From Lentinula raphanica (lineage: Eukaryota > Basidiomycota > Agaricomycetes > Agaricales > Omphalotaceae), in assembly GCA_027919835.1 (NCBI GenBank), contig JANVFP010000012.1:1355866-1419865 (forward strand): DNA of 64,000 nucleotides. Reading direction: 5' to 3'. The notes beneath the pieces were generated by a model, which was not told the DNA's origin, searched no databases, and saw nothing but the letters and a program-made list of their open reading frames with translations. Made by a program: the position numbers and the translations under genes. This document shows positions 28,783-32,161 of the stretch, piece by piece (the first letter of the stretch is position 1; every line of letters begins with the position of its first letter).

Positions 28783-29710
28783 TCACCACGAAGCGGGGAT
28801 GTCCTTCAAATCGTCGTTAATGAAGATCGACATATTTTGCTGTCGAGGGACAAAGTGATCATGAGCCCAGTCTTTGATTTTCTCAAAGTCTCGACAAGTG
28901 TGGACAACGTCGCTTCGTTCCTTAGCGGCTTGGGATTTGTTCGACCACTGCCAAACGATGGGGGTAATGTCGGAAGAGCAGGTGATAGACTGCCGCAAAC
29001 TCGAGATACAATGTTGCATGTGAGGAGTGTGAATACCCTCTCCGGTTATAGGGTAGTATTCCGGGTACATTGCTTTTCGCATTTCGTTCTGAACAATAGG
29101 GAAGCACTTCAGTATACCAGTGCTACAGGATTCAATCCCAAAACCCTACCAAGCAATGGAGTTGGTGAAAGACATCAAGGGCTATCATATAATGATCCTC
29201 CTCTCCAAGGATAGGATAGGTTCTATTCGGCATGAGGATAGCCTCCTCCCGCGGTACCTTATTAAGTGCGACTACCCAAATGTGTGAACAAGTTGAGTGA
29301 TAATGCGCACAAAGTTATACATACATTCATATAGACCATCCCATGCAGCGTCAACCTCGGGTGACGGTGGACGGTCGTATATAGGTAGATCGGCTCCAAA
29401 GCCACTGTGGAATTTTACCGTCTTGTATTCGACGGCGTGATGGGCAGGCGCTTGATAAACCATATGAGCAGGGATAACAAGTGCAATGAGAATCGTACTT
29501 ACAGTAAAGAGTCCGAGTGGAAGAGTCTCTGAGACCCAACACTAATGCGGCCAATAGGACAAGATTGAAAGATATAGATACTGCAAGAAGACCGGGAACG
29601 AGCAAAGCGCGCAGCGGGTTCCGATGACGATTAGTTAACGACGTTGTATCGATATCTTCAGGATTATTGCCAATGAGGGGAAGATAAACAGCCGAGTTGG
29701 TAGTATGCAT
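28783..29710 (-). CDS. UstYa-like oxidase (DUF3328), both HxxHC motifs intact
   Basis: UstYa-family proteins are membrane-anchored enzymes first known from ustiloxin and other dikaritin pathways, where they help to oxidise and cyclise ribosomal peptides. Four exons (29710-29503, 29450-29325, 29271-29150, 29088-28783) join in phase to 253 residues. A short N-terminal tail is followed by a membrane helix (LLVPGLLAVSISFNLVLLAA). Then come EYKTVKFHSGFGADLPIYD and PPSPEVDAAWDGLYE, typical of the family. The two signature motifs are HQLHCL at residues 147-152 and HMQHC at 175-179, followed by SSLRQSITCSSDITPIVWQW and VHTCRDFEKIKDWAHD. All introns are 52-61 nt with GT and AG ends. The start codon lies 1.5 kb from the repeat-peptide precursor start, on the opposite strand. 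Confidence 0.9.
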
Positions 29711-29749
29711 GAGGAAGTGTACTTGGGTTTTGGTCGCAGAGCTCGTCCA

Positions 29750-30420
29750 ACTATTTAACTGTCTTCAGAAACTGAACACTGAAGGTAGTCAGTCGATGTA
29801 GTTCGGATCGTATTTGACGAAGACCGACCCACAGTGTACCAAAGTCAATCGAATTCGACTTCTGAAGATCAGGGGATAGTCGACAGAGTGTTGAACATGT
29901 CAAACTATTCCAGGGTTGGTACATGAGGCACGAGAAACTGGTCTGAGACGGAAAGGTTGTGTTCTGCCAATAAGTCATTAGTAGATGATGGTACAGCAAT
30001 AAGTGTATGCGTCCTACTCAGACGCTCAGAGATGTTCATCCGGAATTCTTTCATCGACCATCGGAACGCAGCCTTCTTCGTGATGATAGGTAGTATCGGT
30101 GGACATGATAAACCGCGACTGTCCGATTTCCTGTGATCCGTCATTATGGATATGAAAGGCGAAACGACGCTCCCACGTACATAGCAAGGCAAACTTCAGG
30201 TTCCCGAACGTTTAAAACACTGTCATGTTTACACACAGAAAGACAGGCTGATATGAGTGGCACGATGCCAGTATTTGCAGCAACTGTTTAGACCAAAGTT
30301 TCGAGTCTGGCTTCCCCTGCCAGCTGAGTCCGATGCAAGCAATATCGAGTATACATAGAGTGTTGAGAAGTAGCCATGAAATCCTTGGTTTGGACATGAC
30401 GGTAAGAGTTGAGGTAAACA
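29750..30420 (-). other. uncertain ORF fragments, possibly a decayed second UstYa-like gene
   Basis: At 30388 a minus-strand ATG starts MSKPRISWLLLNTLCILDIA, a plausible membrane anchor of the kind seen at UstYa N-termini. Downstream frames include VLNVREPEVCLAM and, near 29900, HVQHSVDY, which resembles the second HxxHC block with Ser instead of Cys. A stop codon directly precedes HVQH and no splicing scheme I tried gives a full protein. A decayed paralogue is possible but weakly supported, and unrelated chance frames could produce the same impression. Confidence 0.2.
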
Positions 30421-30540
30421 AAGCGCGGGAATTCGCGATGCCGGATATCTTTCGGCACGGATGAGTCTGCAGAGGTCTGCAGTGACACCACGATCCAGCT
30501 AAAAGAGTTTCGTTTTTTGACGAAGACCATCTCTTTCGTA

Positions 30541-31093
30541 GGTGTTTCTACAGATCCCTTTTTTGCTGACTACTGTGAAGCGTTGAGTATATGTTATCAA
30601 TGTGTGCAAGCGCACTAATTCATCATCAAATCTTAAATCCTCTGTACTGCCTGTTCTAACTTCTAACAGGAAGTTCTAGTTAATCCAGCAACGCGCGCTG
30701 TCTCGCAATCTCTGCCAAGGTACGTCTGATTTTATCATAGACAGGAGGAGGTGTCCGTGAAATTCCGTTAGGACCACCCGTTACAACTGGATTCGAGTGA
30801 AAAAATGTCATTACCCGCCCGTCCTTCATTCATTCTGAATCGGACCAACCCAGCATACCTCAGGAGTTACTCGAACGACTTCAACAGAATTCTGCCATCC
30901 GATTTGTGCCATGAGTCAAGAGTCAAATCTTGGTTTCGAGTTGGACATTAGACGTATGTGCTTCATAGCGCGCTACTGAAAGGCATTGCCAGAGATAAAC
31001 TATCGGCAAAGATATGATGTCTTGCAGGAACGGAGTTTATTACTGAGTGACTCCGAGGTGCATTCTAAAGATGATATCTAGAGCTCCTGTGGG
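30541..31093. other. intergenic upstream of the precursor gene
   Basis: No gene is seen. The segment is the likely shared control region between the rightward precursor gene and the leftward fragments. Confidence 0.35.
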
Positions 31094-31100
31094 TATAAAA
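31094..31100 (+). promoter_or_regulatory. TATA box of the precursor gene
   Basis: TATAAAA lies 91 nt upstream of the precursor start codon, followed by a C/T-rich stretch that suits a fungal transcription start. A strong TATA element fits an inducible, highly expressed gene. Confidence 0.5.
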
Positions 31101-31184
31101 CCTGGTATCTGACCTGGGCAGTATCAACGTCTCAACCTTTTCACTGCTTCAGTTTTCTCTTCAGCTTTATCCAGCTCTCGCACA

Positions 31185-32161
31185 ATGCAATTTTTAGCTT
31201 TCGTTTTCATGGCTATCATGGCACGCAACGTCCTAGCCCTGCCCTTTGCTGAGGGTAAGTTTCCTGACCCTCTCAGCGAAGTCATGGAAATAGTATTTAT
31301 CTCGAATGTAGTTAGCAACACCGTGACCGCTGCAGAAGCCTTCAGCACTCAAGCGTCCCTCCCCACTCCGATGATCTTTGCCAAGATCGCTTGGGATGTT
31401 GAGTAAGTCACCTTAGGATTTGTCGAAGCTAGCGTGCAGTTAACTTTGTTACAAGTAGAAAACGCCAAGGTATCATAATCTGTGGCTTATAGAGCCCTGT
31501 ATTTGTACGCACCACTGACTCGACTGCCTCCCATAGTCGCCAGTGCTTCCCCTATCTTCGCAAAAGATCAATGGGAAGCTCAGGAAGACTCACGGTAGAT
31601 GGTTGAATATTCGGCTTGAATCTCATTGTCGCTCACTCTGCTACTCTTCAGTGCTGATGTTGCTACCGCTGCACCCACAAGTCCAATTCTTGCCGCAAAT
31701 GCAGAACAGACTGAGTATGATCTTTGTCTATGTGCTCAATATATCCTATGTATCATTCTCATGCACCTCTCTTCAATCATCAGTGTCTCAAGCGCAAGCC
31801 CGACCTCCCTCATTTTCGCTAAGGAAGCTTGGGAGTTCAATGAGTAAGTTTCATTTCCGAAAGTACCGCCCAACAAGTACTCACATCCCCTTCTAGAAAA
31901 CGCGATGGTTCGTTCCTTCTCGCCATAATTAGCTGAAACGAATGAACCTGATTCTTTGATTTTCGCTCTCCGAACAGCGACACCCACGAGTGCAATTTTT
32001 GCAAAGGATCAATGGGAAGCCATGGACACAGTGTAAGTTGTTGACTCAATTATCTACATGCATTCAGAAATCGATCTGATTCCATATGTAGTGCGGTGGC
32101 CAGCTCTACAGCACTTCCAGCTGCCCTCATCTTCGCTAAAGATGCTTGGGAGGCGAATTAA
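31185..32161 (+). CDS. repeat-peptide precursor, candidate Kex2-processed RiPP
   Basis: Nine proposed exons (31185-31254, 31312-31402, 31459-31469, 31537-31594, 31652-31714, 31784-31843, 31897-31907, 31978-32032, 32092-32161) total 489 nt and 162 residues. The N-terminus MQFLAFVFMAIMARNVLALP is a signal peptide. Six repeats follow, built on IFAK(D/E)xWE: PMIFAKIAWDVE, SPIFAKDQWEAQ, a degenerate SPILAANAEQ, SLIFAKEAWEFN, SAIFAKDQWEAM and ALIFAKDAWEAN. Two 11-nt microexons encode Lys-Arg (GluLysArgGln and GluLysArgAsp), which are Kex2-type sites. A third site survives only as a similar sequence (AAATCGATCTG at 32068) inside the last intron. Each repeat lies in its own exon. No Pfam-type domain, CaaX end or cysteine is present. 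With the nearby UstYa-like gene this resembles a dikaritin-type precursor. Secreted unmodified peptides (KEP-type) are the main alternative. The splicing is inferred from sequence only. Confidence 0.72.
31363..32158 (+). repeat. six tandem core repeats, one per exon
   Basis: Repeat cores begin near 31363, 31546, 31676, 31796, 31983 and 32110. Five share the sequence for IFA-K with a following Trp-(Glu/Asp); the third has Ala-Ala-Asn and no Trp. Units are 100-190 nt long including introns, so the array grew by copying exon plus intron blocks. Confidence 0.7.

What the first reader, a model, noticed from the sequence alone, without database searches (positions are those of the whole stretch)
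28783..32161. Candidate dikaritin-type RiPP locus: UstYa-like gene beside a multi-repeat secreted precursor
Seen: an intact UstYa-like gene with both HxxHC motifs lies about 1.5 kb from a gene encoding a signal peptide plus six repeats built on IFAK(D/E)xWE, with Lys-Arg sites between some repeats. Known: in ustiloxin, asperipin, phomopsin and epichloecyclin pathways UstYa-family enzymes act on repeat precursors cut by Kex2. Inference: this is a related, possibly new peptide pathway in a basidiomycete, with Phe and Trp as the likely sites of oxidation.
Basis: partly seen in the sequence, partly recalled or inferred. Interest (0 to 1): 0.92.

Follow-up and report, generated by a model that had tools for sequence, protein, structure and literature searches.

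The report
UstYa enzyme beside repeat-peptide precursor gene
In a shiitake relative, a gene for a probably copper-dependent oxidising enzyme sits next to a gene for a secreted-looking repeat peptide, and the pair recurs in other mushroom genera, which marks a probable undescribed peptide natural product or signal.

Summary
The UstYa gene (28783-29710, minus, 253 aa) is intact, with HQLHC and HMQHC. Divergently, 1.47 kb away, a nine-exon gene (31185-32161, plus, 162 aa) encodes a hydrophobic N-terminus and five intact IFAKxxW(E/D) repeats plus one degenerate repeat without Trp. Each repeat has its own exon; the only two Lys-Arg sites lie in two 11-nt micro-exons.

The shared core is (I/V)(F/L)AxxxW(E/D). 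In two Marasmiaceae dibasic runs separate all repeats. The UstYa lies in a shallow 41-row orthologous clade, almost wholly Marasmiineae.

Best reading: a UstYa/Kex2-repeat RiPP pathway, a kind already reported in basidiomycetes, with a Tyr-free core family not found in print by my searches. Oxidation of Phe/Trp is plausible and untested; there is no expression or product evidence. No precursor was found in Mycena despite its UstYa orthologue.

The parts
28783..29710 (-). UstYa-family (DUF3328, PF11807) gene, four exons 29710-29503, 29450-29325, 29271-29150, 29088-28783; 253 aa, N-terminal helix (probable TM), HQLHC and HMQHC
   Evidence: model; Pfam 2.4e-48; identical to P0008; AlphaFold2: helix 32-62, helices 144-158 and 174-190 carrying the two motifs, mean pLDDT 79.9
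29711..31184 (.). divergent intergenic stretch between the two start codons (possible shared promoter region; inference)
   Evidence: no gene recognised by eye, its short ORFs were not scanned against Pfam
31185..32161 (+). repeat precursor gene, nine exons, 162 aa
   Evidence: the annotated relative P0001 from another L. raphanica strain shows the same protein across five of the eight junctions (1|2 to 4|5 and 6|7) and reads on into introns 5 and 7
31185..31254 (+). exon 1, hydrophobic N-terminus (probable signal peptide, by eye)
31374..31397 (+). repeat 1, IFAKIAWD (exon 2)
31459..31469 (+). 11-nt micro-exon 3, encodes the first Lys-Arg site (E-KR-Q)
   Evidence: Lys-Arg or Arg-Arg at this place in P0001-P0004 and P0007, absent from the gene models P0005 and P0006
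31554..31577 (+). repeat 2, IFAKDQWE (exon 4)
31686..31709 (+). repeat 3, degenerate, ILAANAEQ (exon 5)
31812..31835 (+). repeat 4, IFAKEAWE (exon 6)
31897..31907 (+). 11-nt micro-exon 7, encodes the second Lys-Arg site (E-KR-D)
   Evidence: dibasic at this place in P0001-P0004, P0006 and P0007, absent from the gene model P0005
31995..32018 (+). repeat 5, IFAKDQWE (exon 8)
32129..32152 (+). repeat 6, IFAKDAWE (exon 9)

Best explanation
The two genes form a minimal fungal RiPP pathway of the Kex2-repeat-protein/UstYa kind. The precursor enters the secretory pathway. The membrane-anchored UstYa enzyme, with its two HxxHC helices in the Golgi lumen as a dicopper centre, oxidises the conserved core I-F-A-x-x-x-W-(E/D), most likely at Phe and/or Trp (cross-link or hydroxylation). 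Kex2 then cuts at the dibasic sites and Kex1 trims the ends. In the two Marasmiaceae relatives dibasic runs lie between all neighbouring cores, so cores come out singly; in Lentinula only two sites are present, so Kex2 alone would give a one-core N-terminal piece, a middle piece with two intact cores and one degenerate core, and a two-core C-terminal piece, unless single Arg or other sites are also cut. Shown here: gene structures, core conservation, conserved pairing, orthology of the enzyme. Inferred: localisation, copper chemistry, site of oxidation, cleavage, secretion, biological role (conservation across families hints at an endogenous signal or a general defence peptide rather than a strain-specific toxin).
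For: Consecutive locus tags with equal contig lengths: Collybiopsis confluens D9757_002198 (precursor P0007) and D9757_002199 (UstYa P0013), both 726963; Moniliophthora roreri Moror_12716 (P0118) and Moror_12715 (P0018), both 186038; L. aciculospora P0003 and P0010 share contig length 4268692. Core conservation across 42 repeats of 7 precursors: I 41, F 40, A 42, W 40, E/D 39 (repeats were picked by a pattern that presupposes most of these, so the numbers describe, they do not prove). Synonymous sites in the window's five intact cores are saturated (pS 0.96) while pN is 0.15. The window's UstYa lies in a 41-row clade with support 95/95 that excludes all seven C17/C19 paralogue pieces. Both other UstYa clusters found in the genome also hold a repeat precursor. 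Two loci with a kexin-type P domain, PF01483, in the genome. Model topology matches that described for the copper enzyme CctR (PMC12435403, parts 1 and 2 of 3 read).
Against: No expression or mass-spectrometry data. Only two of five inter-repeat spacers are dibasic in the window. One repeat lost Trp here, another in L. aciculospora. No precursor was found in Mycena, Roridomyces, Marasmius, Dendrothele, Tetrapyrgos, Favolaschia, Rhodocollybia or C. luxurians although they have the UstYa orthologue; that search scored only the 7992 candidates sharing most words and sees only predicted proteins. P. palmivorus precursor and its two listed UstYa clusters have contigs of different length (549664 against 236591 and 749645). 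In L. edodes the listed precursor and UstYa rows also have different contig lengths, so pairing in shiitake was not checked; for L. detonsa and L. guzmanii no UstYa row is named. The M. roreri precursor hit alone is weak (E 0.039), accepted because of its six repeats and its position. The shiitake repeat-protein peptide detected so far is linear (PMC9769878).
Confidence: 0.72

Rival explanations
1. The repeat protein is a linear Kex2-processed secreted peptide precursor (signal or interaction peptide), and UstYa acts on something else.
For: Kex2-derived peptides detected in shiitake, oyster mushrooms and Coprinopsis are described as linear and minimally modified (PMC9769878: abstract, section 8 and discussion). 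The core has no Tyr, the cross-linked residue in ustiloxin, phomopsin and asperipin (PMC7329392, passages).
Against: Precursor and the same UstYa orthologue are neighbours in three genera of two families. About a third of UstYa-linked repeats in print also lack Tyr (65.6% contain it).
Confidence: 0.14
2. The pathway is decaying in Lentinula: Kex2 sites and one repeat are lost, and the gene is on its way out.
For: Two of five dibasic spacers in four Lentinula precursors (window, P0002, P0003, P0004) against five of five in M. roreri and six of six in P. palmivorus; degenerate repeat 3; the gene models P0005 (L. guzmanii) and P0006 (L. edodes) lack both and one of the two sites, which may be annotation or real loss.
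Against: Both genes are open and intact in the window; the same two dibasic sites persist in L. raphanica, L. detonsa, L. aciculospora, L. edodes P0004 and C. confluens; core codons keep their amino acids under saturated synonymous change; the listed Lentinula UstYa rows are 75-80% identical to the window's.
Confidence: 0.08
3. The repeat protein is a structural or surface protein (like the Rep1 repellents named in PMC9769878), not the source of small peptides; UstYa might cross-link it.
For: Spacers rich in Ser, Thr, Ala and Pro, and few Kex2 sites in Lentinula.
Against: In the two Marasmiaceae relatives dibasic runs separate all repeats, several of them only 7 to 9 residues apart.
Confidence: 0.06

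Closest known systems
Kex2-processed repeat proteins with a DUF3328 (UstYa) neighbour in Basidiomycota (Umemura 2020, PMC7329392)
   Same: Secreted repeat precursor near a UstYa-family gene; 103 of 1680 basidiomycete cases reported (passages)
   Different: No IFAxxxWE type seen in the passages read; its supplementary tables were not open to me, so the M. roreri member may be listed there
Dikaritins: ustiloxin, phomopsin, asperipin-2a
   Same: Repeat precursor plus UstYa-family oxidase; asperipin-2a has just one UstYa-family gene (passages)
   Different: Core without Tyr; no tyrosinase found by Pfam in the 20 ORFs scanned around the pair; Kex2 sites missing between several cores; enzyme widely conserved in a suborder; product unknown
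CctR, cyclochlorotine hydroxylase (DUF3328; PMC12435403, parts 1 and 2 of 3 read)
   Same: DUF3328 family, single TM helix, HxxHC(x)nHxxHC on two helices
   Different: Acts on a non-ribosomal cyclic peptide; that it is PF11807 was not tested here
Shiitake KEP 2599, peptide SGTGEASAADW (PMC9769878, section 8)
   Same: Lentinula repeat precursor with a Trp in each core
   Different: Seven-fold repeat found as a linear peptide with terminal Trp; here Trp is internal and a UstYa gene is adjacent

Membership tests
UstYa / DUF3328 family | PF11807 match over the curated cut-off | tested here: met
   165.3 bits against 25
UstYa / DUF3328 family | two HxxHC motifs on two helices and an N-terminal TM helix | tested here: met
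   sequence; AlphaFold2 helices 32-62, 144-158, 174-190; H147, H150, C151, H178, C179 invariant in 29 rows, H175 nearly so. That helix 32-62 spans a membrane is judged by eye
UstYa / DUF3328 family | copper-dependent oxidation | not testable with these tools
   shown for CctR in PMC12435403
Kex2-processed repeat protein (KEP) | secretion signal | tested here: inconclusive
   hydrophobic N-terminus seen by eye; no predictor at hand
Kex2-processed repeat protein (KEP) | repeated core more than chance | tested here: met
   5 matches against a maximum of 1 in 20,000 shuffles
Kex2-processed repeat protein (KEP) | cores flanked by dibasic Kex2 sites | tested here: inconclusive
   2 of 5 spacers in the window; 3 of 4 in C. 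confluens, 5 of 5 in M. roreri, 6 of 6 in P. palmivorus
Dikaritin RiPP | precursor gene adjacent to UstYa-family gene | tested here: met
   window, C. confluens and M. roreri by locus tags
Dikaritin RiPP | cyclised or otherwise oxidised core peptide as product | not testable with these tools
   needs mass spectrometry
Dikaritin RiPP | Tyr in the core (cross-link site in ustiloxin, phomopsin, asperipin) | tested here: not met
   no Tyr in any of the 42 eight-residue cores counted; in print Tyr is common (65.6%) but not universal, so I do not file the locus as a proven dikaritin

The most novel reading that the evidence does not exclude
A nearly single-copy UstYa enzyme of the suborder Marasmiineae and its IFAxxxWE peptide form an endogenous, oxidatively modified peptide signal of mushrooms, with a Phe-Trp (i, i+5) or related Trp cross-link that I know of in no member of the family.
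Probability: 0.18. Interest if true: 0.85.

Novelty: new member of a known kind. Interest (0 to 1): 0.55.

Why it matters
UstYa-linked peptides have been worked out chemically in ascomycetes; I know of no such product from a mushroom (recall; the listings showed none), and the mushroom Kex2-repeat peptides detected in PMC9769878 are linear. Here is a conserved enzyme-precursor pair, both members also present in edible shiitake (pairing there not checked), with a nearly fixed core that states which masses to look for, and an enzyme so widely kept that its role may be general rather than a strain-specific toxin. In oyster mushroom 6 of 16 UstYa-like genes are developmentally expressed (PMC8893723, passages), which makes a developmental role worth testing.

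Tried and rejected
A second copy of the precursor elsewhere in the genome: none found. A Pfam family for the precursor: none at E 0.001; four relatives at E up to 1 gave one sub-threshold match, to a malate synthase domain in P0004 at E 0.8. Solved structures: no sequence match at E up to 1 and 0 fold matches at E 0.001. Named loci or the core in print: 0 papers for six exact terms, IFAKDQWE included; a search for micro-exons with KEX2 gave 0 papers; a search for UstYa with tryptophan and crosslink matched 7,113 papers, of which the 15 listed show no UstYa-Trp cross-link in title or abstract start, the nearest being a plant copper cyclase paper (PMC12186524, listing only). The tandem-repeat search of the window does not list the precursor, presumably because introns break the array. 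Lys as the key residue was considered and lowered: it is Lys in only 31 of 42 cores. Skipping of the 11-nt micro-exons was considered and rejected, since 11 is no multiple of three. Hidden Lys-Arg micro-exons in introns 4, 5 and 8 were looked for by eye and not seen. The membrane-protein neighbour was considered as a receptor; its two large ORFs have no Pfam match.

Rows dropped: one search counts use 7 of 10 precursors, 42 of 56 repeats (P0001, P0005, P0006 left out as redundant or broken gene models); the piece IFANKRD of P0007 did not fit the pattern and was not counted. The tree has 106 columns for 116 rows and its bootstrap had not settled. In one search the last printed row (P0022) is an empty slice of a failed motif look-up and was not used.
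Full report
Identity of the window. The window is G000:C12:1355866-1419865, the end of a 1,419,865-base contig in a 49.06-Mb, 75-contig genome. The UstYa protein modelled here is identical over 253 of 253 residues to P0008, annotated as Lentinula raphanica F5878DRAFT_70349, whose longest contig is also 1,419,865 bases. The organism is thus L. raphanica (Agaricales, Marasmiineae, Omphalotaceae), a relative of shiitake.

The enzyme gene. On the minus strand four exons (29710-29503, 29450-29325, 29271-29150, 29088-28783) give an open 253-aa protein. 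It matches PF11807 at 2.4e-48 and carries HQLHC and HMQHC. An AlphaFold2 model on a 29-row alignment has mean pLDDT 79.9 and shows an N-terminal helix 32-62 and two helices, 144-158 and 174-190, each bearing one motif. This is the topology described for the copper enzyme CctR, where the HxxHC motifs are proposed to hold two copper ions per monomer (PMC12435403, parts 1 and 2 of 3 read). No solved structure matched by sequence at E up to 1 or by fold at E 0.001.

The precursor gene. On the plus strand nine exons from 31185 to 32161 code for 162 aa. All eight introns begin GT and end AG and are 53 to 70 nt long. Five intact cores (IFAKIAWD, IFAKDQWE, IFAKEAWE, IFAKDQWE, IFAKDAWE) and one degenerate core (ILAANAEQ) lie one per exon in exons 2, 4, 5, 6, 8 and 9. 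The only two Lys-Arg sites are coded by two 11-nt exons (31459-31469 and 31897-31907). The model is supported by an annotated protein from another L. raphanica strain, P0001: it agrees across five of the eight junctions (1|2 to 4|5 and 6|7), so that both micro-exons are joined to the exon before them, and it reads on into introns 5 and 7. No annotated protein equal to the nine-exon model was returned, so the gene appears unannotated in the window's own strain. Skipping a micro-exon would shift the frame, so they look constitutive (inference).

More than chance. Five matches to the core pattern stand against a mean of 0.00195 and a maximum of 1 in 20,000 shuffles. The core DNA pattern occurs four times in 49 Mb, all here, and the reversed control zero times; no second copy of the precursor was found. 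Among the five intact cores synonymous changes are saturated (pS 0.96) with pN 0.15; since the cores were picked by their amino acids, pN is biased low, but the saturation shows old repeats kept at protein level.

Relatives. The precursor search gave seven proteins: five Lentinula species (raphanica, detonsa, aciculospora, edodes twice, guzmanii) and Collybiopsis confluens. A profile search added Paramarasmius palmivorus (E 2.8e-9) and Moniliophthora roreri (E 0.039), and nothing else up to E 10 among the 7992 candidates scored. Over 42 repeats from 7 of the 10 precursors the core is I 41, F 40, A 42, then K 31 with E, S, V, A, N otherwise, A or Q at position 6, W 40, E or D 39. So Lys is not fixed; Ile, Phe, Ala and Trp nearly are. 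Dibasic spacers: two of five in the window and in P0002, P0003 and P0004, three of four in C. confluens, six of six in P. palmivorus, five of five in M. roreri. The Marasmiaceae members look like ordinary Kex2 repeat proteins; Lentinula lost sites, or never gained them. From the window to M. roreri the enzyme is 61% and the precursor 44% identical over aligned residues.

Pairing. In C. confluens the precursor is D9757_002198 and the UstYa orthologue D9757_002199, both listed with a contig of 726,963 bases. In M. roreri they are Moror_12716 and Moror_12715, both 186,038 bases. In L. aciculospora both are listed with 4,268,692 bases. P. palmivorus does not show this (549,664 against 236,591 and 749,645), nor do the L. 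edodes rows (539,309 and 75,876 against 2,350,089), some of which are clusters of several sequences. I take consecutive locus tags as adjacency; orientation was not seen.

Enzyme orthology. In a tree of 109 UstYa hits plus seven pieces of the genome's other UstYa genes, the window's gene sits in a 41-row clade (95/95) with short branches; the C17 and C19 pieces fall outside (106 columns, bootstrap not settled, some of those pieces on long branches). By my count of the listing 39 of the 41 rows are named and give 37 species names, all but two with one row; rows are 90% clusters, so near-identical copies are hidden. Of the 11 genera, all looked up, 10 are in Marasmiineae and Dendrothele is placed as Agaricales incertae sedis. 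No precursor was found for most of these species, Mycena above all. Tiny exons make the gene easy to miss in annotation, but absence or a different precursor is as possible.

Other UstYa clusters in the same genome. PF11807 matches were found at three places: the window, C17 (five genes) and C19 (two genes) (16 candidates scored). C17 holds a precursor with five repeats reading DPDEFFTTYY, C19 one with about four repeats of the RAFAGNGKEPSQGDLD kind. So three of three UstYa loci found have a secreted-looking repeat precursor close by.

Neighbourhood. Pfam scans of 20 ORFs between 13.4 and 42.7 kb (19 of the 36 ORFs plus one of 121 aa) gave Prp19-type WD40, an OPT oligopeptide transporter, TauD dioxygenase and ALG10, one sub-threshold DUF6474 match, and no tyrosinase, P450 or methyltransferase; small exons could be missed. 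TauD and OPT are not claimed as pathway members.

Reading. The kind is known: 22% of fungal and 103 of 1680 basidiomycete Kex2 repeat proteins have a DUF3328 gene within 15 genes, and one W-bearing type is named among them (PMC7329392, passages). The particular core family was not found in print by the ten searches made, but supplementary tables were not open to me. The mechanism offered is the usual one: Golgi oxidation of the core by UstYa, Kex2 and Kex1 processing, secretion. Only the genes, their conservation and their pairing are shown. Two PF01483 loci, the P domain of kexin-type proteases, exist in the genome; the same search also rings in one of 14 control genomes. Cleavage after single Arg, suggested for Coprinopsis proteins expressed in yeast (PMC9769878, section 4 part 1), could release further cores in Lentinula.

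Noticed in passing
L009:3445-4066 (G000:C17 about 1063444-1064065, minus): A second, more classical dikaritin-like precursor with five DPDEFFTTYY repeats beside five UstYa-family genes (C17 1065188-1071366); its N-terminal exon join was not resolved.
   Followed up: partly
L011:2841-3291 (G000:C19 about 140840-141290, minus): A third repeat precursor, about four RAFAGNGKEPSQGDLD-like repeats without Tyr or Trp, beside two UstYa-family genes.
   Followed up: partly
L010:1869-2259 (G000:C17 about 1071868-1072258, plus): A small secreted-looking ORF pair next to the last C17 UstYa gene, possibly another precursor.
   Followed up: no
window 31459-31469 and 31897-31907: Both Kex2 sites of the precursor are coded by separate 11-nt micro-exons, and each repeat by its own exon; exons 2-5 and 6-9 look like a block duplication (by eye).
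   Followed up: partly
window 21598-23784: OPT oligopeptide transporter gene about 5 kb from the UstYa gene.
   Followed up: no
window 25579-26238: TauD-family dioxygenase match on the plus strand, between the OPT and UstYa genes.
   Followed up: no
window 26849-27901: Membrane protein with several hydrophobic stretches and no Pfam match in its two large ORFs, next to the UstYa gene.
   Followed up: partly
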